Shown one piece after another: positions 3,998 to 41,307 of a stretch of 64,000 nt of DNA. The DNA is from Daphnia carinata (taxonomy: Eukaryota > Arthropoda > Branchiopoda > Diplostraca > Daphniidae): contig NC_081335.1 of NCBI RefSeq assembly GCF_022539665.2, positions 7,130,001 to 7,194,000 of the forward strand, written 5' to 3'. Positions within the stretch are counted from its first letter, which is position 1. Each line of letters starts with the position of its first letter. Position numbers and translations under genes: made by a program. The notes under the pieces are model-generated. The model saw only the letters and a program-made list of their open reading frames with translations, searched no databases and was not told where the DNA came from.

Positions 3998-5533
3998 ATG
4001 TCGTCTACAATCAACAACGAGCGGGATCCAATTAAACAGGAACGCCCGTGCTGGGTTGAAGATCTAGTAAACGACTGGATAGGAACCGATGAAACTCAAC
4101 AAGCCATAAAAATCGAGAAAGGTCCGACGTCTGACATAGGGCCTGAATCGTGCACCGAAGTAGAAATCGCCAAACATGAAATAGAGGAAAGTGGTGACGA
4201 TGACCCAAATTGGCTAAGAAAAATGATTGAGCAGATCAAGAAGGACGGAGATATCGCGGACAGCGACACAACGACAGTAGAACTGCCAGACTTGCACCGC
4301 AATCGGGACGAGAAACAGTCAAATTGCAATCACAGTAAAGGTGAACCGCCACAAGAAAACACAAGTGAAGGTGAAGAATCCATTAGTAGCGAATACGACG
4401 ATGGACACTACACCACGTCAATGGAAGACAGTAGCAGCGACAACGACGACGTGTATCATACGACCGGAAGCTTTGAAAGTACTTCAAACGCTGGGCCGTA
4501 CGAATATGAAAACGAAGAAAGTGTGTTTAACAGTGACGACGATCGGAGTAAGATGGGACACAGAGGTGATTACTACGACACACCCGCAAGCAACGAAGAA
4601 GGAGGACTAAACCACGCCCAAAAAGAGCACATCACTCGCAGTTGCCGTAACTGCATGCTAAAGACCTTCCCTCCTTTAGTGGCCGGCGATGCAGCCAATC
4701 AACGCATCGAGAGGCTAGCCACCATAGCAGCCGAACGAGGACAGTTCGTCTTCGAAATAATCAACGCCCCCCGAGAAACGCTTAGAAAATTTCAGAAAGG
4801 AAAAGAAGAGGAGGGAAGAGCAACAGGGAGGAGCGTGGGAAGCTTGTTGGATACGAAATTCCCAAACGAAAGAACCATGCTCCACGAAAGTGTAAATAAG
4901 AAAAGATACGACGTCACGGAACTATTATTGACTTTCGGCGCAAACATCGACATCACAGAAAAGGGTGAAACAATAGCTCACCGAGCCGCCGCAGACAACA
5001 ACGAACACTTACTCAGAACCCTGTCATTCCACAGGTGTCAGTTTAGCGAATGGAACTGTCTAGGGGAAACTCCCCTAATGGTGGCCATCGCATTAAAAAA
5101 CGAAGAAAGCATCGGTTTTCTGTGGATAACTCCACTGATAAAACAGTTAAGTCGCGATGGAGAAACGATCCTACACTATGCAGCGAGATTCAACAGCAAG
5201 AAAGAATATGTCAACAGTGCATGCATGCACGGTGTAAACGTCAACCAGAAATCTCTGACGCGCCGTGAAACGGCCCTTATTGCAGCCGTACGATATGGGA
5301 ACCCCGAGATAGTTGAAGTGCTGTTAAGGAACGGCGCAAGATATGACGAACCAGACTATCTTGGAAATTATGCCACGGATTACATCGGCGAGAGAGAAGA
5401 AATAGCTAAAGTATTCCTTAACAGAAATATAAAACCGAGAAGAAAAGGCCAGAAAACGCTGATAATTCATTACGACCGAGAAAGGAGCTGCAAGAGGAGG
5501 AGAGGAGCCGGTTCACCATCGGAAGAAGATTAA
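3998..5533 (+). CDS. Ankyrin-repeat accessory protein of LTR retrotransposon A
   Basis: A 511-residue intact ORF after env and before the 3' LTR. Residues 1 to about 205 are acidic and Ser/Thr-rich, with Asp/Glu runs. A short Cys motif (SCRNCMLKT) lies at about residue 215. From about residue 290 come roughly six ankyrin repeats with recognisable TLLH, GETPLM, GETILHYAA and ETALIAA cores, then a basic C-terminus. The order matches the ORF at 40018-41307, with divergent N-termini but the same Cys motif and repeat number. An acidic N-terminus plus six ankyrin repeats resembles IkB proteins. Viral ankyrin proteins such as polydnavirus vankyrins are known to inhibit NF-kB-type immune signalling, but that role here is inference. 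The ATG at 3998 is chosen because it is the first after the splice-like site at 3925. Capture of a host gene is the likely origin. Confidence 0.88.
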   Translation: MSSTINNERDPIKQERPCWVEDLVNDWIGTDETQQAIKIEKGPTSDIGPESCTEVEIAKHEIEESGDDDPNWLRKMIEQIKKDGDIADSDTTTVELPDLHRNRDEKQSNCNHSKGEPPQENTSEGEESISSEYDDGHYTTSMEDSSSDNDDVYHTTGSFESTSNAGPYEYENEESVFNSDDDRSKMGHRGDYYDTPASNEEGGLNHAQKEHITRSCRNCMLKTFPPLVAGDAANQRIERLATIAAERGQFVFEIINAPRETLRKFQKGKEEEGRATGRSVGSLLDTKFPNERTMLHESVNKKRYDVTELLLTFGANIDITEKGETIAHRAAADNNEHLLRTLSFHRCQFSEWNCLGETPLMVAIALKNEESIGFLWITPLIKQLSRDGETILHYAARFNSKKEYVNSACMHGVNVNQKSLTRRETALIAAVRYGNPEIVEVLLRNGARYDEPDYLGNYATDYIGEREEIAKVFLNRNIKPRRKGQKTLIIHYDRERSCKRRRGAGSPSEED

Positions 5534-5776
5534 CTACAAGAATCGCCGCACCCACCAAGTAGAACCCAGAGTACAATATTTTGATTAAAATAAATACATC
5601 CTAGATATCTTGGAACGTAGATTTAGCCTCAAAGAAAAAATGTAACCCAAGAAAGCTTATTCGTATAAACAATGTTGAAGTGTGTAATTCCATTTGTACA
5701 CGCCTAGGGCATAAGTAATATCTAGTGTGTAGCATGGAGTTGGAGGACCAATTCTTATCGATAAAGGGGGGTGGAA
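5534..5776 (+). other. 3' untranslated region and polypurine tract of element A
   Basis: No ORF. A stretch beginning near 5739 (TGGAGGACCAATT and following) matches the sequence just before the 3' LTR of element B. The polypurine tract AAAGGGGGGTGGAA occupies 5763-5776 and abuts the LTR start, where it would prime plus-strand DNA synthesis. Confidence 0.7.
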
Positions 5777-6334
5777 TGTAATGAGTCAATATACACTTTC
5801 ATGTATACTTGACGGTAGCCTATGCTATCCTTGACGTAGGTGTGACGCGTAGTGTACACACTACGTCACCACCTATCGAATATGAGCCGCTCCGCATTGG
5901 TGGATAAAATGAATGCTTCTTTATTGTGTTTGTAATTCCACAGAGTTCGAAATATATACTTTTGTGTTCTGTAATGAGTCAATATACACTTTCATGTATA
6001 CTTGACGGTAGCCTATGCTATCCTTGACGTAGGTGTGACGCGTAGTGTACACACTACGTCACCACCTATCGAATATGAGCCGCTCTGAGTATGTTTAGCG
6101 CAGCGCCTCCATGACACGGAGTTGGGTATGGCGCGTGGTATACAGCCATCGCGCCATGACCTTGTCACGCCCCCGCCGTCTAAGCGTGATGCTAATTATC
6201 ACCATGACGTGCGCTGCTGTAGCCCCTTACTGCTATATAAACCCCTGTTTCTTAATCATTCATCGGAGTTGCCTTTGCTCTCTCACTGTGTGCACTTGTA
6301 CTGGGGTATAATAAACGGTTATGAGAACCTTACA
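5777..6334 (+). repeat. 3' LTR of element A with an internal duplication
   Basis: Begins TGTAAT right after the polypurine tract and ends CTTACA, the same style of end as element B's LTR. The first 116 bases (5777-5892) are repeated exactly at 5970-6085, separated by 77 unrelated bases. Each copy holds an imperfect hairpin around CGTAGTGTACACACTACG. A TATA-like TATATAA lies at 6234-6240 and AATAAA at 6310-6315. The 5' LTR is outside the window, so it is not certain whether the duplication belongs to the family's LTR or only to this copy. Confidence 0.7.
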
Positions 6335-6989
6335 GTTCTATCTCTTAACTAAGATACATTATCAATAAATATCATTTTCAGTTGGATTTACTGCTATTAT
6401 TTCAAATATTCATATAAATAATTAGTACACGAACGGGTCATTTGTTTTTACTTTTTGCTAAATATGTGTCTTAATTTAGGTGTTATTTTAACCATTTTCG
6501 GAGAACTTTTACCAATGTCAGGGAACTTCCCCGAAATTTTATTTTAGGTGATATTTCCACCGAATTGGCAGAGTCTGACTTAGGTGCGAATTTCACCGAA
6601 ATTCGAGGCTATTTTTAACAGGGTAATTTTTTAACACCTAGATTGAAGTAATAGAGGCAAAACCAATTGATTATTTGTTTCGCTTCTTATGCTATTTCGA
6701 AAAGACAATTCATGTCAATAAAGTGGGTCTTCTACTATTGAAAATAACCTACTTTATTTGCCCAACTGGCTTAGATTGGTTAGTTGAGCTCTTCTTTCTC
6801 CCAATAATTTCTAATGGCTATGCATAGCTCGTTTGCTATTTGCATTTGGCAAATCGACTTGATATTCTATCGTGGTGGAATACTAGCTATTTTTAAGCGT
6901 AGTAAGCAATTTGCATTTTCCTGAAAATATCTAGGCTTATATTTTAATTCGTAAATTGTTGCAACAAAAGGTATAACTCATCTTCCAAA

Positions 6990-7462
6990 TCTTCCATTAC
7001 AAGCTTATTGATTTGAAAGCCATTGCAAAGGACAATAACCAAATAATTTACTGTCTAATTTTTTCAAAGGCAGTTTGTTCATCAGTATCCCAAAAAAGGT
7101 TTTCTGATAACCCTTAAATACAAAAAAAGAGTTAATGGGTTTAGAAATAGATCCAGATTGTTTAATAAATTTTGTTTATATTTTCGTCAAATGAGGATGG
7201 TGTTTTAAATTTTACTTTTTTGTGCAGTTTTTCTAGACCGGATAAAATACCGTCGGTCGAGATAACATGACCGAGATAATTGACAGAACGTTTAATGAAT
7301 TATTTTTTTTAAGCTTTAATTTTAATTTTGCGTTTTTCAACAAATCAAAGACTCGCATACCGCGTAAAATGATCTTCAAAAGTATCTGAAAAGATCGTCC
7401 ACCTATTTAAATCAACTAATGCTTTACGTCTTAAAACGTCATTCAGTACATAATTCATTAGT
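6990..7462 (-). pseudogene. Decayed Gypsy reverse transcriptase, C-terminal half
   Basis: Reading the minus strand away from 7462 gives reverse-transcriptase sequence with stops and frameshifts: the region after the TFQR motif, a degraded YLDD region, IIFSDTFEDH-like sequence, a KNAKLKLK stretch, a GHVIS-like block and a TDEQTAFEKIR-like block near the RNase H connection. It is the continuation of the segment at 11975-12400; the transposon at 7472-11965 split them. From 6335 to about 6990 I see only AT-rich sequence, possibly more of the same remnant. Confidence 0.6.
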
Positions 7463-7471
7463 GTTGAAAAG
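7463..7471. repeat. 9-base target-site duplication, left copy
   Basis: GTTGAAAAG directly precedes the inverted terminus at 7472 and is repeated exactly at 11966-11974. Confidence 0.85.
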
Positions 7472-8061
7472 GGTAGCCGGAGAAATAGGACCTGGAGAAA
7501 TAGGACCCGGAGATTTAGGACCTACAAATAGGACCTGGAGAAATAGGACCTGGAGAAATAGGACCCAATCTTCAAACATTTTTTGAAGGGTCCTACTTCT
7601 CCCTATTGAGGGTCCTATTTCTCCAGCCTTGAGGTCCTATTTCTCCATCTTAAAAAAATTAAATGTGTAATGGGCTTAATATTCCGATATGTTGAAAAAA
7701 AAACCGAACGGCTTATATTGGTTTCTGCACTTCAAACACCGTTATCAATATGACGCCTTTTCACTGCATTATAACTTTTTTTAAAAAATTTACATTCATA
7801 ATATTTTTGCAGGATTATATGCTTTTTCTATTGCTTTTTAGAGCTCATTTAATAGAAAAGTAATTTTGTTTATACAGTATTTGGATTTTCGCATTTCACA
7901 TTTTCTTACTGGTGTTTTCAGGCCTACCATCACCCGCCCTTTACTAGTGTCGCTATTCACTTTTTTTTTCTTCGTGCCTCAATGAGGATTCTTGGGAGGG
8001 CACATAAGTACCTCTTAATACACAGATAACTAAGAAAATTATTATATAAAAATAATTTAAG
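7472..8061 (+). repeat. Left terminal inverted repeat of element F
   Basis: Starts GGTAGCCGGAGAAATAGGAC and contains repeated 14-base units GGAGAAATAGGACC, then a turn and the same units in inverse orientation. Similarity to the reverse complement of 11400-11965 continues to about 8061 with many mismatches and small gaps. Confidence 0.8.
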
Positions 8062-9029
8062 AAACGTTAATTTCATAGTAAAACACTGTTTGCCCTTGCG
8101 CAAAATATTGTTTTTTACGATATATATGGCAACGGTTACTACAAGCAGACGACTGTTTCAAGCGAAGTGTCAACATCCTACAATTCTATGAATCGTTGAA
8201 GTTGCTTATTGTAAGCGGTGTTTGTTTGACAGGTAAGTGGCTAGTTTCAGTAAAATTAAAAATTTTCTATTACCTAGGTTTGGCAGTTTTGGTACATTTC
8301 AAATTCATGTTGGCATTAGCACCACAGAAGAAAAAAATTTACTTGGAAGGAAAGGTATTTAAAGTGTAGACATAATTTTATTAGTTGCAGTTGGAAATTT
8401 GACACACATTACTAATCCAAAATGTTTCTTAGGTGGTTACTTTCAAGGAGAATCATGAAACTAGAGCATGATTTACCATGAACCATTTGGGAACCAACTT
8501 GTTAGCTGCCTTATAGCTATCATCCTTCTGGTAATCTAGATTTTCACAGATTTTTTGTTCGTGAAATTTATGTAATCATTTTTCTTATCGTTCAGATGAA
8601 ATAACAGCATTACAGCTGTTAGTTACGTCAAGACATTAATCTGAAGATGCAAGTACTGAGCTTTAACGGATTTCAATTTACAGAAGCAAGACATCCAATT
8701 CTGTTGTTGAGGAGAAAACCAACTACACACCCAGCTATGAATGGACACATGTGTGTAATTGAATCTAAATTAATTTTATTTTTATGGTTTAAAGGCTTTT
8801 CGTTCTAATCTTCCTGCTAGATAGTATCTGAGAGCCATTCTTTAATTATCATTTCACTTAGATGCATTTTCAACTAGTAAATACATTAATTTATTATCGT
8901 CTTAGGTAGCAAACCGAAATCGGTATCATCGCTGAGCAGTGCCCAAGAAAATGTCCAGGAGCACGTAACACTATTCCTTATTATTGATTTCCATGATATC
9001 AATATTGGATATGGATCACGGGATCTCAT
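8062..9029. other. Unassigned interior of element F
   Basis: AT-rich sequence without a supported ORF. A possible splice donor (ACAG then GTAAGT, near 8231) suggests it may hold more intron and exon pieces of captured host sequence, but I recognise no protein. Confidence 0.4.
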
Positions 9030-10330
9030 GTTGAAGGCGAGGGGGAGGAGAACACCCAATCCGTTAGAAAGCTGAAAAAAGAAATGACCGTCGAAGAAAG
9101 GCACTTAATCCGTGCCCAAAAGTATAGGATACATAAACATTTTTACGTTTTGCGTTTAATTATTTAGAGTTACTTGTGTGTGAAAAGGCTACAACTCATC
9201 GAATCGGACTTTTATAAGCATGCCAGCATTAATGAAACGGCGCGGACGCTAGATCTTGATCTCGATGTCGTTGTCGTTGATCAAATTTTCAACTTTTGGG
9301 TTCTTAAACGAAAGGTGTGTGCTCCCAAATTCATGTGTCTCTACTACAAGCAATCAATTTTCTTTTCTAAAATTTCCAGTCCAACCGAGACAGACCATTG
9401 CTACCGCCCAAAACCACTGAAACGGAAAGATTAAGTCAGCAACAACAGCAAGATATGGAACGTATGAAATTGTTTGTACAGCTACGACAAGACCTAGAGA
9501 GGGTATGAACATACTTCTCATTAACTTTATTATTTTATCTCGTTAAATGCAGAGTTGTCAGTAAAAACTGTTCTTCGCTGTAGGTTCGAAATTTGTGTTA
9601 CATGGTCAGCCGAAGAGAGAAATTATCACGATCGTATTTTCGATTGCGAGAACAAACCTTCCACAAGCAACAGCGATTTTGTCTCTGTCTGATCTACAAA
9701 AAACTATCACCCCAGCAGAACTGACGCCAATCATGGCTCCAATGTCTATGACCTTGTATATTTACGTGAGGAAACGATCCAAAAAGAAGGCTTTGAACAA
9801 GTCATTCAACTCATAGCAGGCGTACAGTCGAACATCCCCGCAATGAAAAAGGTTTGGCTTTTCCGTAATTATCGATGACAAGGAAACAGTTCTCAATCTG
9901 TGTGCGTTGAATTTATTTGGTTGCAGGATAAAAATGGAATCGTTGGTCGTCCCAATCATTTAAAGGAAGACAACCCATACAAACGCACGTACATGAATGG
10001 GGGCGAAAGTCGTTGATTCCGCTCGCTATCTTCCATCAGTGCCGAATCGGCTGCCTCTGATACTGAAACAAACAGTAGATGGAAGAGACCGGTATTTCAA
10101 ATCATCTTCCTGTTCGAGTTTCTACGCCGATCACAATTTCCCATTTTTTATTCTTTCCGTCCAGGTGAGAACACCTTCGCAAACATCAATTACCTCGGTC
10201 GACAGCGATTTCGATGTAGCCATTACACAGCTTGGTTCCAAAAAAGCCAGTTCGAAAACTAGTGATAGAGCTGGCAAGTTCATTTACACCGACAGTGAAG
10301 AAGAAGCGGGACCTTTTAGGCTTTTGATGT
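9030..10330 (+). pseudogene. Captured fragment of a Jade/rhinoceros family gene with introns
   Basis: Exons 9030-9121, 9188-9314, 9380-9502 and 9584-9721 join in one frame through short GT-AG introns (66, 65 and 81 bases); a TGA follows at 9722. The product matches the conserved block after the PHD fingers of Jade proteins: MTVEER, an FYKHA helix, a DLDLDVV then NFWVLKRK motif, NRDRPLLPPK, FVQLRQDLERV and RNLCYMVSRREKL. Jade proteins are scaffold subunits of HBO1 histone acetyltransferase complexes; this block helps contact the enzyme. Further pieces (NPYKRTY, ESAASDTET, TDSEEE) follow to about 10320 but include a TGA near 10015. PHD fingers are absent, so the fragment cannot be a full Jade protein. 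Possible products are a truncated protein or silencing RNA. Confidence 0.8.
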
Positions 10331-10439
10331 TACCTGCTAAATTTTTGTTTAATTGTTTGTATTTTGTAAAAATAAATGTAAATCAATTACCAAAAATTTA
10401 TGGTTTTATTTTAATTTAAACAAATTTTCTTGCGTCCTT

Positions 10440-10720
10440 TGGCTGCCGCGATCCGGACATTCCGCGGATGTTCCAATACGTACGTTCACTGAACGTACGG
10501 ATTTGCCATCCTGCAGACGTCCAACTAAGGACGTCCGTAGTACTCCCAAATAAGGACGTTACCAGGACTTCCAATTAATTACGTCCGTAGGACGTCCTCC
10601 AGTGGACGTCCCTAAAACCGGACATTAGGACATCCTGGTGACGTACATCTGCCGTCAGAATAGGACGTCCCGATCGGCCAGCCAGGACGTAGATGGGATG
10701 TCCCTGGGACGGACAAAGGT
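10440..10720. repeat. Cluster of GGACGTCC-type palindromes
   Basis: About 280 bases rich in variants of GGACGTCC and CGTACG, with a hairpin around CGTACGTTCACTGAACGTACG near 10480-10500. Units are irregular. It may be a degenerate MITE or an inverted-motif array inside element F. Confidence 0.55.
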
Positions 10721-10997
10721 TAGTAGGGTATGTATGTGCTATAATCTTTTTGTTTAAGGAAGGCAAGCCAGCATATGCCATCCAATTTCAGGGGAAAAGC
10801 AGGACTCTGATAAAATGAAAACTCAACTTAAACGGAAGTTAGATAAGTTGGAGAAGAAGAAACTAAACAAACAAAGGAAAAATAACAGATGCCAAGGTAA
10901 ACTTTGATTTCGACAAAAAAAATAGACCTTCAACTAATTTTACTTTTCTGTATTTTAACAGATAAAAGAATACTAAGCGCAATAGGTTAAAAAAAAT

Positions 10998-11222: not shown

Positions 11223-11399
11223 CATGGATGAGCTGCCTCGTGTTCCATTATTTACAAGCCGTGCCATGATAGTTTTGTATAACAATACACTGGCATGCCT
11301 TCCATGATCCGAGCGGAACTCATTATTTTCGTTCTTGCCACGTAGGTCTCTATTTATGGTTTTGCGGCATATATTTTTTTTATTAAAAAATGTGCTTGT

Positions 11400-27823: not shown

Positions 27824-28029
27824 TGTAACAAGCCCAAAGGCTATCCAAAGACAGCCACACCCTTTACATCCCTCAAGCGTTACACAAGTGAAAGTGAACG
27901 TATCCCCGCCCATTTTACCTTCATTTTGTGTGTTTGTTAGTAGTATAAATACAGCATGTTTGTACCTTGTAAAATCGGAATTGTTTCGGCAAATCCACTG
28001 TAATACACGAGGTATAAGGGAACTTTACA
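27824..28029 (+). repeat. 5' LTR of element B
   Basis: 206 bases, TGTAACAAGCCC...GAACTTTACA. A TATA-like TATAAAT lies at about 27944-27950. Matches 41614-41819 with about three differences. Confidence 0.92.
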
Positions 28030-28031
28030 AT

Positions 28032-28049
28032 TGGAGGTCCCAACGAGAC
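28032..28049 (+). promoter_or_regulatory. Primer-binding site of element B
   Basis: TGGAGGTCCCAACGAGAC begins two bases after the LTR, the usual position for tRNA priming of minus-strand synthesis. I do not name the tRNA. Confidence 0.65.
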
Positions 28050-28160: not shown

Positions 28161-28170
28161 AAAGGTAAGC
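28161..28170 (+). promoter_or_regulatory. Putative splice donor in the leader of element B
   Basis: AAAG|GTAAGC with GT at 28165-28166, eight bases before the gag ATG at 28173. Splicing here would remove the gag start and let env or the ankyrin ORF be the first ORF on the mRNA. Confidence 0.55.
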
Positions 28171-28172
28171 GA

Positions 28173-30893
28173 ATGCCGCTTGATCATATTGTACCAGAGA
28201 CTACTCGTAAAGAGAATACCTTGTATACAAACATTGTCGACGAATTATCCCCACCGTTGTACCCTATACTTCCCGAATCAGACACAACCAACCAAAACCC
28301 CAAGAGAGAAAAATTTTTAGACCACTGGAAAACTTTTGTGGACTTAGAATTTGAACAAGAGGTAGAACCAAACAAAACCTATCAGACTACCACGACAAAA
28401 GCAAAAATCCAACAAATAGAGTCCAAGAAACAAGAAGTTATTAAAGAGACCCACAACGCATTACAATTATATTCATATACGTTGTTAGAACCATCATTGC
28501 AAGTACCAAGTGGTATAACAGCAGAAACTATTACAAACACCACAAAGACACTTAAAGATTACGTAGAATCCCTTGGTGGCAACACCGAAAACCTTGACAG
28601 TTTATTGCAGCAAATTAGCATTGTACATGGTAAAGAAAAAGAATTCCTATTAGGTATCAGCCGTATTTTACAAAGAGAAGTAGTACTTGCGCAGATAACA
28701 GAGAAAAAATATTCGTCTGACCTCAATTTTGAGCTACAGAGCTTACGAAAACAGCTAGATAGCAACAAGAAAAAGGCAAAGAGTTCCAAATACACATTAA
28801 GTAGCTCCCTTGAACAACTCCAAGAAAGTAACGAAACACTAAAAAACTCGCTTGAGAAATCTGCCAATCGAATCAGCGAATTAGAAACAAGCCTTGAAAG
28901 TGCCACAGCAACAGAAAACCAACTACAAAACCTTTTACGAAAAAAAGAAGACAATATCATAGCTGTTGAGAGAGAAGGCCAAGAAATAATTAGCAAACTT
29001 GAAAGTGAAAGAAAACAACTGGTTACGAAGTTAGAAACCACCGAGCAACAGATAAAAGCAGCTTTAGAGACAAACAACCACCTTCAGACAGAAGCAAAAG
29101 AAACACAAGAGATCCTTGAAAAAACCTTAGCAGAAAAAGCCGGCTTACGAAGAAGTCTGATAGATATTACTACAAAGAATAAAAATCTTGAAACATAATT
29201 ACAAAAAACCAACATACAGATAGGAGACCAGGAAGAAAAGATTAAGTATCTGAAAAACAGAATAAAAGAATATAGAAAGCAACATTCGCTGAAACCGAAG
29301 ACTTAAACAACTCCAACGAACCGGGAGAGATAACAAAATGAGTGAGTGAGATAAACGACCTAACCTCAATAACAGAAGGAGACAAATCCCTTCACTTCGA
29401 GTTAGAAACTGAATAATTCGAAAAACTACAGCAACTCAACAACGAGCTACAAAACCAAATCGAGATCCAAAACGACAACCTTCTTCAACTAGAACGAAAG
29501 TACCAAACTCTCAAAAACAAAATCAAAATGGGACTTTCACACAAAGAAACTTCAAGAATTGCCCGCGACACAACAGATACCGATAGCCTCGATACATCCA
29601 CAACCCAACCAATTGTAAAAGCATTAGGAGAATTATTTTCAAGAGAAAAAAAAAGTCAATTCCAATCTTCAAAGGGAAAAGTACTGATAAATTAATAACA
29701 GAATGGCTGAAGGACGCCGAACATGTAGCACGCAACAACGACTGGGACGACAACCAAAAAATACGATTCTTCTCTGACAGACTAAAAGGCGACGCCCTAG
29801 AATGGCATGGAAACTACGTAGAAGAGCAAGGTGACGAGTTAAGTTATGACGAATGGAAAACTGCCATTATTGCAAGATTCCAGGATGCATACGACTTAGC
29901 AGCAAAAGAAAAAAGTTATCCACACTAAAACAAAAACCTGAAGAAAAATGCAAAGCCTTTATCTCAAGAATCAACAGTCTCTACGAGTCCATTGAAGGCA
30001 AAGAAGAAAAATCTGACCCAAACCAGACCATCGTTGAAGGTCGACTCATAAACACAGTCAAAAGAATGAGAGATTATACCAAAATCAAAATTCTGATGCA
30101 AGGCATCTTACCAAAGCTAAGAGCCGAACTTTATTTCAGAATGCCCGAAGACCCCGAAGATTTTGATCAGTTATGTAAACAAATAATAATATCCGAAGGC
30201 ATCCTATATAGCAAGGAAAATGCAGAAAAGAAAGAAATAAACGCGGTAATCGCAGGGATAACGCATCACGAGAAACAACAAGATAACGAACTTTCACAAC
30301 AAAAGACAGAAATCGAATTCCTAAAACAAAAAATACGTGAACTGGAAAATACTAATAAAAACCGTGAATTGTCACAGGATACCGATATAACCATAGCAGC
30401 CACAGATCAATACGAGCAAAGATCTTCGCGATCAAGTGATCGTTACTCCAGACCACAAAATCCGCGAGTCCGATTTCACGAGAGACCGAATAGCAGAGGC
30501 TCCAGTAGTGACCGAAACTTCAATCGAAGCAGAGATAACAGCCCATACCGCACCAACTATACTTCACCAAGAAGAGAAGGTACCTCCACGTGATATATGC
30601 AATCAAATTACCCAACTTACCAGCAAACACCCCAGAGACCCCCGTACAACAACAGACCGATACACTACAATCGACCGAACTTTCAACCACATAACAATCA
30701 ACAGGTGTATCATCAAAACCCAGCCTATACTCATCAATACCCACAGCCACGACAAAATCAACCAAACACCCCTGACAACCTAGGAAATAGAATTCTTGTC
30801 TGCCACAAGTGCAATAAAAGAGGACACATTGGGCGAGAATGTTGGACGGATATGGCACGTATCAACAACCCGAACCACCGTCCAATGCAGTAA
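28173..30893 (+). pseudogene. gag of element B with a long coiled-coil N-terminus
   Basis: The ATG at 28173 is chosen because an in-frame upstream extension has no ATG and lies before the splice donor. Residues 1 to about 340 (to the TAA at 29196) are largely predicted coiled coil, unusual for Gypsy gag. After a damaged stretch (29199-29640), the capsid region follows (EWLKDAEHVARNN, KIRFFSDRLKGDALEWHG, RFQDAYDLAAKEK, then CKAFISRINSLYESIE). There is a one-base loss in an A-run near 29910 and an in-frame TGA at 30591. A zinc knuckle CHKCNKRGHIGREC (CX2CX4HX4C) lies near 30800-30842. The product would build the particle and bind RNA. The last 55 bases overlap pol in another frame, consistent with programmed frameshifting. 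Confidence 0.85.
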
Positions 30894-33800
30894 ACACAAT
30901 ATCCCTACCAAACAACCCTCCAACACAAAATTTAGAAATAGCGATACCCAAACTAATACGTATACCCATTAGAATTTTTGGAAAAGAAATTAAGGCTTTA
31001 TTAGACACAGGAGCAGCAGCCAGTTTAGTTCCAGACAACATATTTCTTAATCTAAAGGAGTATGAAGAACTGAAACATGTTAAAGACTCCCCTTCGCCAA
31101 TATTTAGAACGGTGTCAGGAGAAATACTAAAATAAAAAGGGAAATATGGATTTTCAATCACCATTAACACCAATCACGTCATTAAGCATGATTTCTTTAT
31201 TATGGAAAACTTGAACGAAACTTGCATATAAGGATTAGACTTCTTATCTAGCAACAATGTAAAAATTAATACTAAAAACAGGCAGATCAATTACGATCAT
31301 TCCGGAAAAGAACATAGCTTTGGTAAAAACACACTCCCAGTATACAGCATAACTTTTGGCAAGGCAGGTATTAATATTCCACTCCTCCCAGACCGTTGGT
31401 CAGATAGTAACTACAACAACGATCTGACAGAAGCAGATTATCGCAGCCTAGAATCTTTCTCCCAATCAGAAATTAACAAAAAATCAAAACGAATTGGACA
31501 AACCCAAGAAAGTGAAGCGAGTAACATCTCCGACGAGATACAAATTAAAATTGTAAACCTATTGAAAAAACACGAAACCCTATTTGCAGAAAGAGAATCA
31601 GATTTGGGTCTAGCAACTGATGTAAAGCACTCCATTAACATAGGATACAATGCCCCAATTACACAACGATTGCGCAGAACACCAGAAGCATTAAAACTAA
31701 TTGTCAAAACAAAAATAGATGTAATGATAAGTAACAATATTATTAGAGAAAGTCACAGCCCATTTGCAGCAGCAATTGTAATGGTTCCCAAAAAAGATGG
31801 AGAGATGCGTATGTGTGTTGACTATAGGGCACTTAACAAAATAACCGTAAAGGACAAATACCCATTACCAAGAATTGACGACACCATTGATGCATTGAGC
31901 GGATCAGTTTATTTCTCAACATTGGACTTACTAAGTGGCTACTGGCAGATCGAGATAGAAGAAAGCGACAAACACAAAACCGCCTTCATCTGTGAACTTG
32001 GACAATACGAATTTAATAGAATGCCATTTGGACTAACAAATGCACCAAGCACTTTTCAACGAGCAATGAATAACATATTGAAATCAGTATTGTTCAGGTT
32101 CGCATTGGTTTATCTGGATGACATCATAGTGTTCAGTAATAATATTGCTGAACATGTGAAACATCTAGAAGCAGTGTTTAAGCTTCTTACAGACGCAAGA
32201 CTAAAGTTAAAAAGAAAGAAATGCGAATTTTTCAAAGAAAAGTTAGATTATTTAGGATATATGTTTCGAAAAAAGGAATAACACCGAGTACAAAAAAGTT
32301 AGAAGCGATCATCACATACCCAGCTCCCAAAGACGTGAAAGAATTGAGCTCATTTTTAGGTTTGGCTAGCTATTACAGAAAATTCATCAGGGCTTTTGCT
32401 GATAAAGCCCACCCACTGACAGCGCTAACGAGAAAATCAGCCGAGTGGAAATGGGGAGAGGAACAAAGGGACGCCTTTGATTGTATCAAGAACTGTCTCA
32501 TAACTAGACCTATCCTAGGGTATCCAGATTTCACGCGCGAATTTATCATCTACACAGATGCTTCAGGATACGGTATAGGAGCAGTCTGGCTCAGATGCAG
32601 ACTCTACCTCAATCAGCGGATTCAGCGGAGTCCAACGTACAGGAACCCCGTGAATCAGACGGCGCGGAAGTCGTCATAGCGTATAGCTCTAAACATCTGA
32701 ACGACCGCGAAGCCAAGTGGTCAACCACAGAGAAAGAGGCTTACGCAATCATCCACGCAATTGACGTGTTTAGGACATATCTATACGGACGCAGATTCAC
32801 CGTATTTACAGACCATAGACCTTTAGAATGGTTAATGGGCAAGACAGAACCCGCAGAAAGATTAGCTAGATGGGCACTAAAAATACAAGGATTCAACATC
32901 GTCATTGGGTACCGGCCTGGGAAGTCGCACCAAAATGCTGACACCCTAAGCCGTATTCCCATAGTGCCAATAGCACGAGTAGAAACAAGGGCAATGGAAA
33001 GAGGAACTGTCATAAGAGAGCTTGAAAATATTCGAAAAGAAAGTGAAAGTTTAAAAGAAAAGCTAAGGATCGAAAGATTAAGGAAACAAGAACAGCTGGA
33101 GAAAGAAAACGAAAGTATTCAAAAAGAAAGCGAAAGTTTTGAGAGGGAAAGTCTTCAAAAGAAGAGCGTAAGTTTTGAAAGAGAAATTGGAAGTGAAAGT
33201 AAAAGGTCTTGGAGAGAAGACAGATGGATAGAACTACAGCAAGCAGATAAATATTGTCAAAAACTAATGATGAAAATACAAGAAGATAGCCAGAAAAATA
33301 GAAATAAAAGATTCTCAAGCAGCTTTATAATCAATGAAAAAGGTCTATTAACAGATAGACAAGGAAAATTAGTAGTCCCTGTACCGTTAATCAGCGGAAT
33401 TTTACGAGCAAATCATGATCACATGATGGCAGGACATTTAGGAATCGAAAAAACAGTAGCCAGACTTCGCGAGCAATACTTCTTCCCACACATGCGACAA
33501 AACGTAACAGAACACATCAAAAATTGCCTTAAATGCGCAAAACGCAAGGCTGTGGGAGGAAGTAAAGCCCCATTGCAACCTATGCCCCCAGCCAAAAGGG
33601 TGTGGGAAAAACTTGCGATGGATATTGTGGGCCCCGTTCAAGAAAGCGCAAAGGGACATAAGTATATTTTAGTCCTATCAGATTACGCCAGTCGTTTCGT
33701 TTTTACAGTACCAATGAGAGACCAGACTGCCCAAACAATTGCTACAATCTTGGTTAATGATATTTATACAAAATATGGATCCCCCGAAGTCGTCCTAACA

Positions 33801-34691
33801 GATCAAGGGACTAACTTCCTGTCGAGCTTAATCCAAGATATTTGCAAATTGTTTAAAATCAGACAAATCAGAACAACAGCATACCACCCCTGAACAGACG
33901 GATTAGTAGAACGATTTAACAGAACCCTATGTGACATGCTAGCTTGCTACGTAACGGACGAACCAGAAAATTGGGACAAATATCTACCATTTGTCACCTT
34001 TGCCTACAACACAGCGAAGCAATCAACACTGCAGCAAAACCCATTCTTTCTATTCTTCGGGAGACAACCGGTGCTCCAAAACGACATCAAAATAGATAGA
34101 CGGTACGAAACATACGAAGACACCAGTGTAATGTACTCACATCAATGGAAGAAGGCTCAGCAACTAGCGAAGGAACACCTATTTCGGGCACAGACAAAAC
34201 AAAAAAGATATTACGACAAAGGAACAAAAGCAATCAAATACAACATCGGTGACTTTGTGCTACTGAAAGCTCCACCAACTGCCGGAAAATTCATCAACAG
34301 ATGGAATGGACAATTTAAAATCATCAGAAATTTCTCAGATCTCACTTACGAGATTGAGAACGCAGACAATGCAAGACTAAAATCGATAGTACACGTCAAC
34401 CGCCTAAAACTCTACGTCCCGGTAAACCAAGGAACAGAAAGATCATCTTGTGCGTCACACCAACCAAGAAATGAAACTGTACGACGAGGACCAGGAAGGC
34501 CAAGGAAAAACTGCTGTAACAACGAAAGAAGGCCTGTCCCTAGAACGCGTATACGTCAAACAGCAGAGGAGGAGAATTGTATTATCATCGCACCAAATAT
34601 CCCCGGTCCCATACCAGATAATCCTGCACGCACTAGAATGACGAATTCACGATACAACTTACGGCAACGCTACGAAGTATCGAGATTCTAA
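30839..34691 (+). pseudogene. pol of element B: protease, RT, RNase H, integrase
   Basis: Protease has LLDTGAAASLV near 31005. Reverse transcriptase (about 31560-32280) has KKDGEMRMCVDYRALNK and the catalytic YLDD near 32110-32125. RNase H begins YTDASGYGIGAV near 32550. Integrase shows an H-H-C-C zinc region (NCLKCAKRK), catalytic blocks MDIVGP, LTDQGTNF and GLVERFN, and a GPY/F-like module (WNGQFKIIR). Breaks: TAA at 31133, TAA near 31229, frame changes near 32265 and 32587, and TGA at 33891 within the integrase core. Between RNase H and the integrase zinc region is a Lys/Glu/Ser-rich segment (33010-33220) not typical of Gypsy pol. The enzymes would copy RNA to DNA and integrate it; this copy cannot. 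Confidence 0.9.
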
Positions 34692-34700
34692 ACGTCCAAA

Positions 34701-34714
34701 TTTTCTTTTCGCAG
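34701..34714 (+). promoter_or_regulatory. Putative 3' splice site for env (element B)
   Basis: A pyrimidine tract TTTTCTTTTCGCAG ends with AG at 34713-34714, and the env ATG is the very next triplet (34715). Gypsy-type errantiviruses are known to make env from spliced RNA. Confidence 0.65.
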
Positions 34715-37700
34715 ATGGAACTGATACTATTACTCATCCAATTACTCACCATCATTCCATCCACATATCCCATCTATTCAACCGTATGCGACTGCAAGAA
34801 CGTAAAGACCGGAGGAATTTTAGATATAGAGGGACCATATTAATGCAACAACAAAGAATCAGATACAGCTCACATACCCAAAATACCCACGTTGTACACT
34901 TTAAAAACGACACAGAAACCAGCAGCTTCTTGGAAAGGCTGGACCTGCAAGCAATGGATAAAAACAAAGAAAATAACTGGATCATTTTGGATCGGATCTT
35001 TCGACACAATATATTCACAAGAAACTAAATTAATTACCCCACTGGAATGCTGGAGAATGGTAAACGACAAGAAGTGTGGCGATAACAACATGCAGACCGG
35101 ACCAGCAGGACTAAGTTTCACAGCTACCCCAACAGGCGAAGGGCAATGGTATGCCATAAAACAATACCATACCCTCAACTGTATTGCAGAACGAATCACG
35201 CTACGACAAGAAAAGCCAGACGACCCAATTGAAAGCCCGTTCGGACCTCTGAACACCACACAACAAGAAGGACACTTCATCCAGAATCAGAATACAATTG
35301 TGTGGGGCGATAGAAAAACAAACAATTCGTACACGCAAACGTTGTTTAAAGGAAACGGATACCTAGAACTTCCAAGGATGCCAGAACACGAAAACACCAG
35401 CCGTCTCTACGACACCAATCGACAGATCGAGATTTCATTCCTCAACAAACCAGATCGGGATATAACACCACAAGGATACAAAGTTGTGGGCATACCGCTC
35501 ACATACCTAATCTTTCCAACCGAAACTACGAGAAAACTGTACGAGATGTTCAAAACAACTATACATACATGTCTACAGAATGCTCACCTAGATACATCGG
35601 TGTGCAAAGACTACAGGGAACTCCAGTTAACCAAACGGAAACGATCCATTCAACAGGAAGTTACATTCTTGCTCAACACTCCTCTTAAAGACTCAGGAAA
35701 ACGTCTTTACAGCATTTCGTACGCCTGGGGACCAATAAGAATGGGATATCCACAATCAGTCAGAATCGGGGAGAAAGACCGATTCGTAAACTACAACGCA
35801 ACGATATACAGTACATGCCGAAAGTTTCCGGACAGCCGAGAGCGGCTTATGGAAAAACCGGTTTTTCTTTTAACTCTTAAAAATATACTAATCATCGGAC
35901 ATAGTTGTTTCGTAGACTTATCTACTTTTTAAATCGCAGCGGAAAATATTCAAGGTCGCTACGGCGGCAGCAGAAGCCGCTATAGATATATAGAAATATA
36001 AAAAATATTTTCCGCTCCGATTTTTTATGTAGAGGAATAGGAAAATCGGCAACTATGCGGGATGGGAAGATAGCGCAAATTTCCTTGGAATAAAAATTTG
36101 CCGTTTTTAACTCAAAATTAGAGTGATTCTGCATATGGCATGATATGCAAAATCCCATATTAGATTATAGTTTAAATGATGCTTTTTTTTAAGCCCAAAA
36201 AACTCCCTCGTAGCCCCATTTATCGTCGCGTACATGAGAGCCAAAGTTGCCCCATTTACTATTGGCCCTCTCGACTGTCCGGAAACTTTTGCCAGCTATT
36301 TTAAACGGCCTTTCCCGTGAAAGAAAAATTCACAAAAAATCACGTATAAAACTAATCTTAAGGAACAACTTCATTTTCAGAATCATCTATGTCCGATGAT
36401 TAGTATATTTTTAAGAGTTAAAAGAAAAACTGGTTTTTCCATAAGCCGCTCTCGGCTGTCCGGAAACCTTCGGCAGGTACTGTACATAGTATACAAACCC
36501 GAAGAAAGCAACCAGTTGACCTCACACTTTCGTCTCAAGAACGATGATCCACTTCTACAAGGATCAGAATTTGAATACATCGTTGACCAAACAATCCGAG
36601 TACAGAACGGCGATAGATGTATTACAGAAGGAGAAGCAAACAAAATGATCGTAGGACAATGTTCAGAATATTCTACAAGATGGATCCTAGATCAACAAAA
36701 TTATCAATTAATTTCACAAGAATCAAACCTCTGTATTACACTCGGATCCCAGCAAACAATAATACTAACAGAGTGCAGAGAGGACAAGAACAGCGTAACA
36801 CAAAAATGGATCTTCGAAACTATAAATACCAATCCAGACATCCTAGAAAATTTCCAGGACACAACGTTGGCAGAAATGCAGGAAATTCAACAAGAACAAC
36901 GAAAGGCAATCACAACTACGATTAATTCACCACTATTCGGAGGAATTTTAAAAACTAATCACGATAGCGGAAATATAATCTGGGACATGATTGCCTGGGG
37001 ACTATTGAAGAATGGAAAAGCACCGAATGAAAAATGTCTAACACACCACGGAGTAAACAAACAAATGACGTTGGAAGAATGTGACAAACAGTGGCCACGA
37101 TGTCAAGAAGAACTAAGAAAATTTGTAAGCAGCAATGATCCACTAGTGCAAACACAAACAACGGTAGCCAACTGTAGCAAAGCGACGGAAAGAGGACAAG
37201 CTTTTGAATACACATCTGATTTTACAATCAGACCTTTCAATACAAACACATGTATCAAAGCCAATACGACAATATTAGTGCTCCAGGAATGCGCAAAAAC
37301 CAGCTCAATTTGGGGCACATTCGAACACACAGGACAGCTCATGGCAACAGATAGAACAGGGTTACATTCACCCTCATCAGACAGAAAGTGTCTAACACAG
37401 AGAGTAGGACGAGTGAGCCTGGGGCATTGTCACGGCTCCAGCCAAAAACCACATTTCAGCTTCGAATATCGGAACCCCCACCAGCCAAAAACGCTTTCAG
37501 CGACAGTCATCATTGCACTACACACTCAACACCCATTGGACGGGAAAAACCTCCCATACATTCCACCACTGATGCAAAGAGAAGTGAACAACCAATCAGA
37601 AAGGAATGAAACATCGGCCCCGCCCCTGCCACGCCCACAACAGAAAAATCCACAACGACAAGCGCGACGACGACTACGAAGCCAACAATAAAAACAACAT

Positions 37701-39324
37701 TGGGAACAACGACAAAAACAACGGTAAAAACTACGACTACAATTAGGCCAATTATAACCACAGCAACAAACAAAATCACAACAACGCATAAAATTACAAC
37801 TAAGCCAAGTATGACGTCAACTTCAACAAAACCCTCAGCAACTACAAAACCGACGATCACGTCAACAAGCACTAAACCGACCACTACAACTAGGCCTACG
37901 AAACTGTAAAAATATCTTCGACTTCAGAAAAAAGTACGACGACAGTAAAAGAGAGTTCGACGACCCCACAACCGTCAACACAGACAGCCAGGATGACCCA
38001 ATTAGCTACAGCAGAAACAACGACTACAACAGAAGAAAAACAGGTTCAGGCCATAGAAGAAGACAATATTGAAAATTTACCGCCAGCAGAGTCCCTGTTA
38101 ATGGACCAGAAAACAGAAGAATCATCAAATACTGAAAATATAGAAAGCGGTCTCCCCAAAAACATCGAGGAATTCAACGAAAAGATTAAATACGAAATAA
38201 GCAAAATGCACGACCAATACAAAATCAGTATTGAAACAGAACACGAGAACAAGCTCGCAAAAGAAATTCGAGATGTGTATTGTCAACTATCGGCCATCAA
38301 AAGAACACAAGCTGTCATCTTAGCACAAACAAATGGAATTTTGGCCGCAGCAGCAGTAGGTTTACCAATCTGCACGAGACTACAAGGCTTCGGTCAAGCA
38401 ATGACACTTCAACGATGCGAAGCCAAGAGAATATTTATATCAGCAAATGAGACAAAATGTGGATTTAAACCGTTCTTTACTTACGAAGGAAAAAACTGTA
38501 CGATCGGAATAGATGGATGGTCAATTCACCCATTTTCCGATTGTTTTTGCAAAACACCGTTAGTGAACTTGAATGGAAATCCACACACCTGGGAACACAA
38601 CTCTACAACAGGAGATTGGATACGACAGAAACCTATCATCCACATGCCTAATCTAGACCTCATTACGGAATTTGAAGAACTCCACCTTAGTGATTTCGAT
38701 TTCTCGCTGAAAAGTCATCCAGCACACGAGATAATGGAAATGGAGCAATTAAACATCCTAAATGACCTAGTTGGCAGAATGCAAGAAGGAAATTCCAATT
38801 CTGTTGGAGATATAGTGATGTCAGAAGAACAAGATAATCAAATAGGCCACATGTATTCATGGTTCGACAAATTGAAAATAATAGGCCTTTCAGCGATTGG
38901 ATTTGTGTTATTCTTCATATGTTTAAGAATCTTTATCATTTGCAACCCCATCTCAAAAATTAAAAAACATATCCGCCGAAAGTTTACAAGCCGATACGAT
39001 GATGGCGTAGAGGAAGACCACGAACTTGCATCAATGATACCGGCACGAGAAACGAATTATCATTCAGAAATAGCCATCGAACAACCGTTCATAAGAACAC
39101 CTGCCCCTACACAATTGACAATGGAAAGACAAAGTCAAGTGCGCCCTCCACGACCAAGCGCACCAAACTCGTTATTCTACCCATCAATCAAAGAAGCCGG
39201 CACACCCAAAAGATGCACAAGAAAACACACAACATGTACTTATGTCTTTGGGTACGGCATGGTTTGGGAAGACCTATGTCGTTGCATGTCAGAAATAGAC
39301 AGTAGTAATTCAGCCAGAAAGTAA
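34715..39324 (+). pseudogene. env of element B, split by a MITE
   Basis: Begins MELILLLIQLLTIIPS, a signal peptide. TAA at 34841 stops it after 42 codons; the same frame then stays open to the MITE at 35809. A furin-like site (KRKR then S) is at 35633-35647. After the MITE (36483 on) come two Cys/Trp lectin-like modules (about 36610-36815 and 37250-37440). Frame changes lie near 37630 and 37910 around the Thr-rich stretch, then the C-terminal ectodomain (about 38150-38850), one membrane helix (about 38870-38945) and a tail with C-HTTC-YV-G-GMVWEDLC-C, shared with element A. The product would be a surface glycoprotein; this copy has at least four lesions. The class of fusion protein is unresolved. 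Confidence 0.88.
35809..36482. mobile_element. Tc1/mariner-type MITE inside env of element B
   Basis: 674 bases starting CAGTAC with TA duplicated at 35807-35808 and 36483-36484. Terminal inverted repeats are 96 bases (35809-35904 and 36387-36482) with three mismatches. No transposase. TA duplication and CAGT ends fit Tc1/mariner/pogo elements. Insertion occurred within the env codons, and the flanks are in the same frame once the element and one TA are discounted. Confidence 0.9.
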
Positions 39325-40017
39325 AAGTCCCAAGGTCATTGAAATTAAAAGTAGCCACTAAACATAGCCCTTGACAAATTTAATTAATAACAGAATAAAT
39401 TAGCAGCCCCCAGTAAATAACGCACTTATCAGCATTTTCAACCAATTAAGTTGATTCTTAATTTCTTTAAATATATATATCCCGTACTCGTAACTTTAGA
39501 GTAAAACAAAAAGGAGAAGCAAACTCAAATAACAATTTTGTATTCCCAACTAACATTAACTAAAAATTCAAAAAAAAACAAAAACAAAAACAGAAAACAT
39601 TAAACCTTTATGATAGACAAAGCAAACATAATTACAAACCCAAATAACATTTTTATTCTCGACTAAAAACAAAATCAAAAGTCAATAACAAAATCACCGG
39701 AGAAACAAACAGAACAACAGATGCAGCAGTGTAATGTAACAGAGAACGACAGCAACTAACTCACAAAGATAAATAAAAAGCACAAGAACCCCTATAAGAA
39801 AAAGACAATGACTAAAAAAAAAGGAAAATAGAAAGTTCAAAATCAAACGGTACCTGTTTTCAAACTAAGAAGAGGGGAACAAGAATTTATGAAAAACTCT
39901 GAAAAAGAAAGATTTTCCAAAATACAATAACTAACCTCTTCCCAGTGTCTCAACGACATAACTCCGACAAAGTTCCACAAAGCAAAGTGTCATCACAAAT
40001 AAACCATTCCTCTCAAA
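39325..40017 (+). other. Leader between env and ankyrin ORF in element B
   Basis: AT- and A-rich, no ORF. A CTAAC branch-like motif followed by CTCTTCCCAG gives a 3' splice site with AG at 39944-39945, exactly 72 bases before the ATG at 40018, as in element A. Confidence 0.6.
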
Positions 40018-41307
40018 ATGGCAAACAACAACACCAATCAGGATAACGCAATGGACGTAATCATCATCCCACAGGACCAAAAGGAACACGAGTTAATAAT
40101 CATTAGTGATACTGAAAGTGAGAATATCCAGCAAGAGTACAGAGAAAAAGAAAGTGCGAAAAGTGCGGATGTAAACAGGCAAATAGTGAAAAACGTAGAA
40201 TGGAACGGAATCAAAACCGAAAAGAACGATTTTTCCGAACTAGAGAGAAAAAGGAAAGAAAGCAGTGAATCAAGTGACGACGACACCGAGGAGTTAAATG
40301 CATATAGTGAAATAGAACCCGATATGGAAAGTACCCACAGTGCCGAATTTATATTGGAAAATAACAGTGACACCGACCTCCAATATGACCCGCCCCACAA
40401 TGCCGAATTTATATTGGAAAATAAGAGTAACACCGACCTCCGATGTGAATCGCCCCAAAAACGGAGCAGGCCGAATGACCAACAGAGGGAAACGGAATCA
40501 TGCAAGAACTGTCGGATGAAGACAATAGCACCCATACCAACAGAACGAGCAGAAATAATCAATCTGAAAAGGCAAGCTACGATAGACTTAGAAAACGGAA
40601 CACTTTCGTTATCAATGATGGAAGCCCCGATGCAGGTAATAAGAAGATGCATTCAAAACGAGTTCGAAATGCAACATGGTTGGCCAAGACCAAAGAGAGC
40701 AACATTTCTCAATAAAAGATTCGAAAACGAGCAGACACTACTTCACACAAGCGTACGAAGATGTAGGTATGACATTACCGATCTTTTACTATCCTTCGGA
40801 GCAGACCCAGAGATACTCTATCACGAAAAAACAATTGGCCACATCGCAGCAGCCGAAAATGATCTACTGTTAATAAGAATCTTGAAACATAACAATTGCG
40901 AATTTACAGCTCGCAGCTATAACGGAGAAACCCCCTTAATGTTGGCGATTTCACACAAAAACGAAGAATGTGCGAAATTGATTTGGACACCGACTAACAT
41001 CAACATTACAACACCAGGCAACTTAACCATTTTACATTATCTAGCCGAATATGGCCTAGAAGACCTGGCAACACTAGTGTGCACAAAAAGACTTATCAAC
41101 ATCGATCAACAAGATGACTCAGGTGAAACTGCCTTACATAGAGCCGGCAGTTTCAATCAACTCAACATGATTGAGCTATTACTGCTACACGGAGCAGACA
41201 CCGGAGTAAAAAACACCAATGGAAACACAGCTGAAGCACATACACGCAGTAATGGAGCGCGAGCCATTTTCCAAAGGGAGAAACAAAACATAACAGTAAT
41301 CGCCTGA
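40018..41307 (+). CDS. Ankyrin-repeat accessory protein of LTR retrotransposon B
   Basis: A 429-residue intact ORF downstream of a broken env. The N-terminal 150 residues are acidic and Ser-rich, with an internal duplication (two HNAEFILEN/HSAEFILEN units, near 40340 and 40400). SCKNCRMKT lies near residue 161, matching SCRNCMLKT in element A. Around residue 240 ankyrin repeats begin: TLLHTSV, TIGHIAAAEN, GETPLMLAISH, LTILHYLAEYG, GETALHRAGSFN and a final degenerate unit. Element A's version is 82 residues longer, mostly in the acidic part. Probable location is host cytoplasm or nucleus, since there is no signal peptide or membrane helix. IkB-like interference with Toll/NF-kB signalling is a hypothesis; scaffold or regulator roles are equally open. 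Confidence 0.88.
   Translation: MANNNTNQDNAMDVIIIPQDQKEHELIIISDTESENIQQEYREKESAKSADVNRQIVKNVEWNGIKTEKNDFSELERKRKESSESSDDDTEELNAYSEIEPDMESTHSAEFILENNSDTDLQYDPPHNAEFILENKSNTDLRCESPQKRSRPNDQQRETESCKNCRMKTIAPIPTERAEIINLKRQATIDLENGTLSLSMMEAPMQVIRRCIQNEFEMQHGWPRPKRATFLNKRFENEQTLLHTSVRRCRYDITDLLLSFGADPEILYHEKTIGHIAAAENDLLLIRILKHNNCEFTARSYNGETPLMLAISHKNEECAKLIWTPTNINITTPGNLTILHYLAEYGLEDLATLVCTKRLINIDQQDDSGETALHRAGSFNQLNMIELLLLHGADTGVKNTNGNTAEAHTRSNGARAIFQREKQNITVIA

What the first reader, a model, noticed from the sequence alone, without database searches (positions are those of the whole stretch)
3998..41307. A post-env ankyrin-repeat gene conserved in two divergent LTR retrotransposons
Seen: elements A and B each have an intact ORF (3998-5533 and 40018-41307) between env and the 3' LTR, with an acidic Ser-rich N-terminus, a shared SC-NC-MKT motif and about six ankyrin repeats. 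Gag, pol and env are broken in B, and env is broken in A, yet both of these ORFs are intact. Known: IkB proteins have an acidic regulatory N-terminus and six or seven ankyrin repeats, and polydnaviruses carry IkB-like ankyrin genes. Inference: a host ankyrin gene was captured by the ancestor and kept by selection, possibly to dampen NF-kB-type immunity or to act in germline spread.
Basis: partly seen in the sequence, partly recalled or inferred. Interest (0 to 1): 0.88.

Follow-up and report, generated by a model that had tools for sequence, protein, structure and literature searches.

The report
Ankyrin accessory gene in Daphnia retroelements
Virus-like jumping elements in the water flea Daphnia carry an extra ankyrin-repeat gene behind their envelope gene, kept by natural selection on the elements themselves, most likely to bind a still unknown protein in the host cell.

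Summary
The family fills at least 117 places there; 34 of 38 fetched copies have the env end upstream, and Daphnia magna gene models show the same env-ank order. Amino-acid change is strongly constrained (dN/dS 0.15-0.33 in four pairs, p 1e-4 to 1e-24). Shared variants are constrained while singletons are near neutral, as in env: selection acts on the replicating element, not on single insertions. 49 of 69 scored RT copies of this clade have ank downstream, against 0 of 12 of the sister clade, so gain in this clade is likely. The NF-kB idea is neither supported nor excluded: no DSGxxS degron (0 of 64), weak similarity to the host's Relish-type repeats, generic fold. I read it as a spliced accessory protein that binds a host factor by its helical-cap-plus-six-repeat domain; the target is unknown.

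The parts
1..6334 (+). Element A, 3' part (the 5' LTR lies upstream at G000:C5:7122752, L039:2752-3116)
   Evidence: LTR pair 98.4% identical, target duplication GTTC read by eye
28..1761 (+). A: env-type ORF, first part, with Ricin_B_lectin domain
   Evidence: Pfam PF00652 E 1.5e-13
1784..3535 (+). A: env-type ORF, second part (transmembrane end), in another frame
   Evidence: homologous to B 37993-39324
3910..3925 (+). A: splice-acceptor-like CTAACACTAACTTCAG before ank
   Evidence: sequence; inference, no transcript seen
3998..5533 (+). A: ankyrin gene (511 aa): mostly disordered acidic N-terminus (residues 1-224), SCRNCMLKT (215-223), helical cap (229-284), six ankyrin repeats (about 290-480), basic then acidic tail
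5970..6334 (+). A: 3' LTR
27824..28029 (+). B: 5' LTR
   Evidence: 98.5% identical to 41614-41819, target duplication GTAT read by eye
28032..28048 (+). B: primer binding site, complementary to the 3' end of D. carinata tRNA-Thr(AGT) plus CCA; the same 17 bases in A at L039:3119
28164..28175 (+). B: GGTAAGCGAATG, splice-donor-like site whose GT lies 8 bases before the gag ATG; the same 12 bases in A at L039:3237
   Evidence: inference, no transcript seen
28173..30593 (+). B: gag region, broken frames
31562..34691 (+). B: pol (RT, RNase H, integrase), three open pieces
   Evidence: Pfam
36396..37691 (+). B: env-type ORF piece with Ricin_B_lectin domain
   Evidence: PF00652 E 7.7e-16
37993..39324 (+). 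B: env-type ORF piece, transmembrane end
39931..39945 (+). B: splice-acceptor-like CTAACCTCTTCCCAG, identical or similar in the eight other B-family copies aligned
   Evidence: inference
40018..41307 (+). B: ankyrin gene (429 aa); SCKNCRMKT at 40498-40524
41614..41819 (+). B: 3' LTR

Best explanation
The ORFs are copies of one accessory gene of an env-carrying Ty3/gypsy lineage of Daphnia. SHOWN: a homologous gene in a fixed place (env - ank - 3' LTR) in many copies and, by gene models, in a second species, under purifying selection that acts through replication of the element. LIKELY: gained on the stem of this clade, since the sister clade has env but no ank. INFERRED: it is translated from a spliced mRNA that joins the donor just before the gag ATG to an acceptor upstream of ank. 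INFERRED: the product is a protein-binding adaptor. Its rigid part (helical cap plus six ankyrin repeats) grips a host protein; the disordered, acidic, Ser-rich N-terminus, which is also constrained, is a regulated or effector tail. The likeliest use is to disable or redirect a host factor that limits the element in the cells it enters. I put 'gene of the element, selected at element level' at about 0.93, 'host-directed' at about 0.55, and Rel/NF-kB as the target at about 0.12.
For: Family size: 87 scored matches to P0001 and 109 to P0002 (only the best candidates are scored), which merge to 117 distinct places, 24 A-type and 93 B-type, many of them pieces. Fixed place: env-TM end upstream on the same strand in 34 of 38 loci. 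D. magna gene models continue from env into ank (P0065, P0066, P0068, P0069). Selection: dN/dS 0.33, 0.15, 0.29, 0.23 in four pairs, p 1e-4 to 1e-24; N-terminus 0.21-0.38, cap 0.07-0.29, repeats 0.09-0.41 in seven pairs. Element-level selection: nonsynonymous:synonymous 13:6 for singletons and 49:78 for shared variants in 20 copies, Fisher p=0.023 (46 multi-state or multi-hit codons left out); env-TM 10:4 and 17:62 in 19 copies. Against a neutral share of 0.80 the singletons (p=0.16) and B's own branch, 12:5 (p=0.24), are not distinguishable from neutral, the shared variants are (p=3e-24). Gain: ank within 18 kb downstream of 49 of 69 RT copies of this clade, 0 of 12 of the sister clade; no ank match and no plus-strand frame of 100 aa or more between the env end and the LTR of the one sister copy read (L058). 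Host-facing: ank changes faster than its neighbours (A against B family: RT about 78%, env-TM 58%, lectin part 55%, ank 35%; carinata-B against magna: lectin part 71%, env-TM 56-61%, ank 41%). Fold.
Against: No transcript, protein or interaction evidence. Fast change also fits weak constraint: dN/dS of ank is about twice that of env-TM. dN/dS used only copies with open frames (32 of 47 fetched ank loci), which biases it down on young branches. Pieces of the gene are exchanged between copies, so one tree does not fit the whole gene, and shared variants include such exchanges. 20 of 69 RT copies of the clade have no ank in my lists, and that list scored 81 of 1388 candidates. Gain against loss in the sister clade is not settled by an outgroup RT tree.
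Confidence: 0.55

Rival explanations
1. Element-internal regulator: the ank protein serves the element's own expression (RNA export, LTR activation, or assembly), as CERV does for Cer1 in C. elegans, rather than opposing the host.
For: Spliced-mRNA signals; acidic N-terminus and basic tails in several members; precedent CERV, abstract read (PMC10309623).
Against: The related sister clade has no ank; ank evolves faster than env and RT.
Confidence: 0.3
2. IkB/vankyrin mimic: the ankyrin domain binds Dorsal/Relish dimers and dampens Toll/Imd signalling.
For: Six repeats; no degron, as in vankyrins (PMC3757122 and PMC3359993, passages); D. carinata has Rel genes; Bcl-3 (1k1a) superposes on the model, TM 0.75 by target length.
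Against: The fit is generic: designed ankyrins and ankyrin-2 rank alike; the repeat exons beside the host's Relish-type Rel match reach at most 42 bits with five family members; no IkB among the 60 PDB sequences shown.
Confidence: 0.12
3. Host-domesticated gene: single copies are kept because the host uses them.
For: Intact frames beside broken gag, pol and env in A and B.
Against: 117 dispersed places; singletons and the B branch not distinguishable from neutral; B's close relatives L010 and L038 carry broken ank frames; intactness within chance.
Confidence: 0.03
4. Passive cargo without function.
For: The gene varies in length and tail, and the sister clade lacks it.
Against: dN/dS 0.15-0.33 with p down to 1e-24.
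Confidence: 0.02

Closest known systems
Vankyrins / bracovirus Ank proteins (PMC3757122, PMC3359993; passages read)
   Same: Ankyrin genes in multi-copy families carried by insect-associated viruses, without the IkB degradation signal
   Different: No IkB affinity shown here; this family adds a conserved helical cap, an acidic N-terminus and, in Daphnia, a CxxC motif; it is carried by a retroelement
Burro giant gypsy elements of planarians (PMC6431247, passages read)
   Same: Ankyrin repeats inside a gypsy-type element
   Different: There they lie within a giant ORF1 polyprotein; here a separate gene behind env
ORF3 genes of bdelloid rotifer LTR elements (PMC5408684, abstract read)
   Same: Extra genes captured downstream of pol by LTR elements
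   Different: Those are esterase, exonuclease or env-like; ankyrin is not named in the abstract
CERV of Cer1 (PMC10309623) and sORF2 of MDG1 elements (PMC11952523), abstracts read
   Same: Accessory proteins of LTR elements (CERV from a spliced mRNA)
   Different: Neither abstract describes an ankyrin protein; CERV works in RNA export and sORF2 in cell-to-cell transfer

Membership tests
Ty3/gypsy (Metaviridae)-type LTR element | RT - RNase H - integrase order with flanking LTRs | tested here: met
Ty3/gypsy (Metaviridae)-type LTR element | tRNA primer binding site next to the 5' LTR | tested here: met
   17 bases matching the tRNA-Thr(AGT) 3' end plus CCA, in A and B
Errantivirus | env derived from a baculovirus-type fusion protein | tested here: inconclusive
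   no Pfam match for the transmembrane part, no PDB match for two B env pieces; RT not placed among named lineages
IkB family | six ankyrin repeats | tested here: met
   A: six helix pairs, the last one short; B counted by eye as five full plus a capping one
IkB family | DSGxxS phosphodegron in the N-terminus (motif recalled) | tested here: not met
   0 of 64 family sequences, many near-identical and some partial
IkB family | closer to IkB/Relish repeats than to other ankyrins | tested here: inconclusive
   weak to the host's Relish-type exons; not among the PDB 60 shown; Bcl-3 at rank 41 by fold
IkB family | binds Rel dimers | not testable with these tools
   needs a binding assay
Polydnavirus vankyrins | IkB-like repeats without degradation signals, sequence kinship to vankyrins | not tested
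   no vankyrin sequence was compared; only the missing degron is known
Domesticated host gene | selection on a fixed copy | tested here: not met
   singletons 13:6 and B branch 12:5 nonsynonymous:synonymous, not distinguishable from neutral; tested on B and 20 B-type copies only

The most novel reading that the evidence does not exclude
Cladocerans host a lineage of retrovirus-like gypsy elements with a retrovirus-style extra gene: gag, pol, a lectin-bearing envelope, and a spliced ankyrin accessory gene that blocks a host defence during infection. Copies exchange pieces of this gene by recombination, and it occurs in at least two Daphnia species and, in a third form with its own C-terminal part, in unnamed environmental sequences.
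Probability: 0.3. Interest if true: 0.8.

Novelty: new variant of a known kind. Interest (0 to 1): 0.6.

Why it matters
Accessory genes are well known from vertebrate retroviruses and, as far as I recall, rarely described in invertebrate gypsy elements. An ankyrin gene kept by selection behind env suggests that these elements need to manage a host protein, and it gives a concrete handle for finding what host factor restrains retroelements in crustaceans. It also warns annotators: copies are listed in databases as Daphnia ankyrin genes (for example 'serine/threonine-protein phosphatase 6 regulatory ankyrin repeat subunit').

Tried and rejected
Rejected: the intactness argument; host domestication; passive cargo. 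Led nowhere: viral-contig scans with A1, P0073, P0001 and P0135: one weak ankyrin locus in the first, none in the others. Two B env pieces against the PDB: no match. A SUMO-interaction-like stretch (ELIIISDTESE in B; motif rules recalled) is in 5 of 13 members tested against 1.4 expected by shuffling, and the B rows share ancestry, so only a lead. The 50 VIA-align rows shown are nearly all designed ankyrins and no IkB is among them, which excludes nothing. Literature: no listing, abstract or passage that I saw describes a post-env ankyrin gene in Daphnia or other arthropod elements; the library holds open-licence papers only and most hits were seen as listings. The paper on D. pulex LTR elements has no 'ankyrin' in its text (PMC2996953, text search). 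Troyka (PMC12440569, passages) has no 'ankyrin' in its text and no env.
Full report
Identity of the window. It is G000:C5:7130001-7194000 of a 108-Mb genome.

The observation. Both ORFs are present and homologous. Element B is complete from LTR to LTR: 27824-28029 and 41614-41819 (3 of 206 mismatched), target duplication GTAT, and a primer site of 17 bases equal to the complement of the 3' end of tRNA-Thr(AGT) plus CCA. Element A starts upstream of the window at G000:C5:7122752 (L039:2752) and ends at 6334, with duplication GTTC, 98.4% LTR identity and the same primer site. Both show RT, RNase H and integrase in the Ty3/gypsy order.

A gene of the family, not of two odd copies. P0001 has 87 and P0002 109 scored matches in the genome (only the best candidates are scored). 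Merged within 1.5 kb they are 117 places, 24 A-type and 93 B-type, many of them pieces. Of the 38 copies fetched with flanks, 34 have the env transmembrane end upstream on the same strand, mostly 0.4-0.8 kb away (1.35 kb in L033-L035, fused in L007); the four without it are L004, L031, L036 and L037. The ank frame is intact in 26 of the 38 (22 of 30 B-type, 4 of 8 A-type), an env-TM frame of at least 200 codons in 28 of the 38. In D. magna, database gene models run from the env part into the ankyrin part (P0065, P0066, P0068, P0069; P0080 joins lectin and ankyrin); they are models, not transcripts that I saw. A profile search adds unnamed environmental proteins (for example P0007, P0072, P0073, P0075, P0077) and then drops to generic ankyrins (120 of 257 hits listed). 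In a tree of 28 rows the family (24 rows) stands apart from four generic ankyrins at 100/100, and A-type carinata groups with magna P0064 at 99/97. If that join is right, the A/B split is older than the split of these two species, or the elements have moved between them; the program warns that P0064 and the A rows are long branches whose join may be false, that the generic rows differ in letter make-up, and seven forks are open.

When it was gained. Of 1388 RT candidates in the genome 81 were scored; 69 belong to the A/B clade (68-100% identity to A) and 12 to a sister clade (50-53%). Within 18 kb downstream on the same strand, 49 of the 69 and none of the 12 have an ank match. The sister copy read (L058) has integrase, an env-type ORF with a sub-threshold lectin match (E 4.9e-6, 27.2 bits against a cut-off of 29) and a transmembrane ORF 38% identical to B's, then the LTR, with no ank match and no plus-strand frame of 100 aa or more in that gap. 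Gain in the A/B clade is the simplest reading; loss in the sister is not excluded.

Selection. From 47 ank loci I used the 32 with open frames (15 broken or partial ones dropped; one of the 32, L049, lacks its start). Pairs from different branches give dN/dS 0.33 (L001-L006), 0.15 (L012-L018), 0.29 (L009-L036) and 0.23 (L051-L053), with p = 1.1e-4, 1e-24, 6.5e-14 and 5.7e-19 against neutrality. The highest value among the pairs printed is 0.60 for the young pair L051-L052, and pairs with dS under 0.02 pool to 0.54. The acidic N-terminus (0.21-0.38), the cap (0.07-0.29) and the repeats (0.09-0.41) are all constrained; the short tail mostly is not. A against B is saturated at silent sites and gives no ratio. 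Env-TM of the B-type pairs L012-L018, L009-L012 and L009-L018 has 0.08-0.13, so ank is constrained about half as tightly; the A-type pair L001-L006 gives 0.70 for env-TM, where L006 has a differing, broken env. In 20 young B-type copies, singletons are 13 nonsynonymous to 6 synonymous and shared variants 49 to 78 (Fisher p=0.023; 46 multi-state or multi-hit codons left out); env-TM shows the same pattern, 10:4 and 17:62 in 19 copies (p=0.0005; 23 codons left out). On B's own branch the count is 12:5. Singletons and the B branch are not distinguishable from a neutral share of 0.80 (p=0.16 and 0.24; small numbers), shared variants are (p=3e-24). This is the pattern of selection during replication of the element, then drift after insertion.

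Recombination. Silent divergence jumps along the gene: B's first half is close to the L012 and L018 families (dS about 0.1-0.6 in windows) and its second half far (above 1.2). L020 has no silent difference from L012 in the first two windows and is within 0.12 of L018 from the fourth on; L029 is near L012 until the last windows and then near L018. Copies exchange parts of this gene.

Structure and features. The A model has a mostly disordered N-terminus (residues 1-224, one doubtful helix at 72-84), a confident helical cap (229-284), six helix pairs (294-475) and a loose tail. An environmental member (P0073) has a like cap and six helix pairs plus a low-confidence helical C-terminus. Matches are generic: designed ankyrins, ankyrin-1/2, HIP14, RNase L, and Bcl-3 at rank 41; among viral models, ankyrins of poxviruses and giant viruses. 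No DSGxxS in 64 family sequences, many of them near-identical; 43 of the 64 have C.NC..[KR]T, and the 21 without it include the environmental ones other than the D. magna-like P0067, and several partial models. The genome has Rel-domain matches at two places; the ankyrin exons near the second, which I take for Relish, match five family members weakly (best 42 bits).

Expression. A and B share GGTAAGCGAATG, a donor-like site just before the gag ATG, although the leaders otherwise differ by eye. Acceptor-like sites precede ank in both (39931-39945; 3910-3925), and the B-type one recurs, identical or with small changes, in the B copies aligned. This is inference from sequence.

Mechanism and rivals. 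The evidence fixes what the gene is (an element gene under element-level selection) and leaves the partner open. Faster change of ank than of env and RT, its presence in one clade only, and a pure protein-binding architecture favour a host-directed adaptor; an internal regulator such as CERV is the main rival. NF-kB is a possible target without specific support.

Novelty. Extra genes in LTR elements are known (bdelloid ORF3, CERV, sORF2), and ankyrin repeats occur in the polyprotein of planarian Burro elements. A separate, selected ankyrin gene behind env in a Daphnia gypsy clade was in none of the listings, abstracts and passages that I saw (open-licence library only). I rate it a new variant of a known kind.

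Noticed in passing
window 28-1761, 36396-37691; L058 1537-3345: The env-type ORFs of A and B carry a Ricin_B_lectin (beta-trefoil) domain before the transmembrane part; the sister-clade copy has a sub-threshold match (E 4.9e-6), a signal-peptide-like start and an RQKR site (by eye). An unusual envelope make-up.
   Followed up: partly
window 5777-5969: Element A has a 116-bp LTR piece plus 77 bp identical to its 5' flank (related copies elsewhere on contig C5) just before the full 3' LTR; either a rearrangement or an assembly error.
   Followed up: partly
window 35801-36490: 111-nt inverted repeats (94%) enclose about 470 bp inside B's env region; probably a small insertion.
   Followed up: no
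window 45482-53990: Direct repeats of 225, 113 and 85 nt about 7.7-8.1 kb apart suggest a further LTR element.
   Followed up: no
window 58528-62067: An intact 1179-aa ORF with gag, protease, RT and RNase H domains.
   Followed up: no
G000:C9:8292306-8305615 and C1:6344679-6345017: The tRNA-Thr 3'-end motif recurs, mostly at steps of multiples of 325 bp; the C1 site holds tandem tRNA-Thr(AGT) genes.
   Followed up: partly
L009, L012, L018, L051; P0067: A stretch like a SUMO-interaction motif (ELIIISDTESE in B) in the N-terminus of four B-type proteins and one environmental, D. magna-like protein; 5 of 13 members against 1.4 expected.
   Followed up: partly
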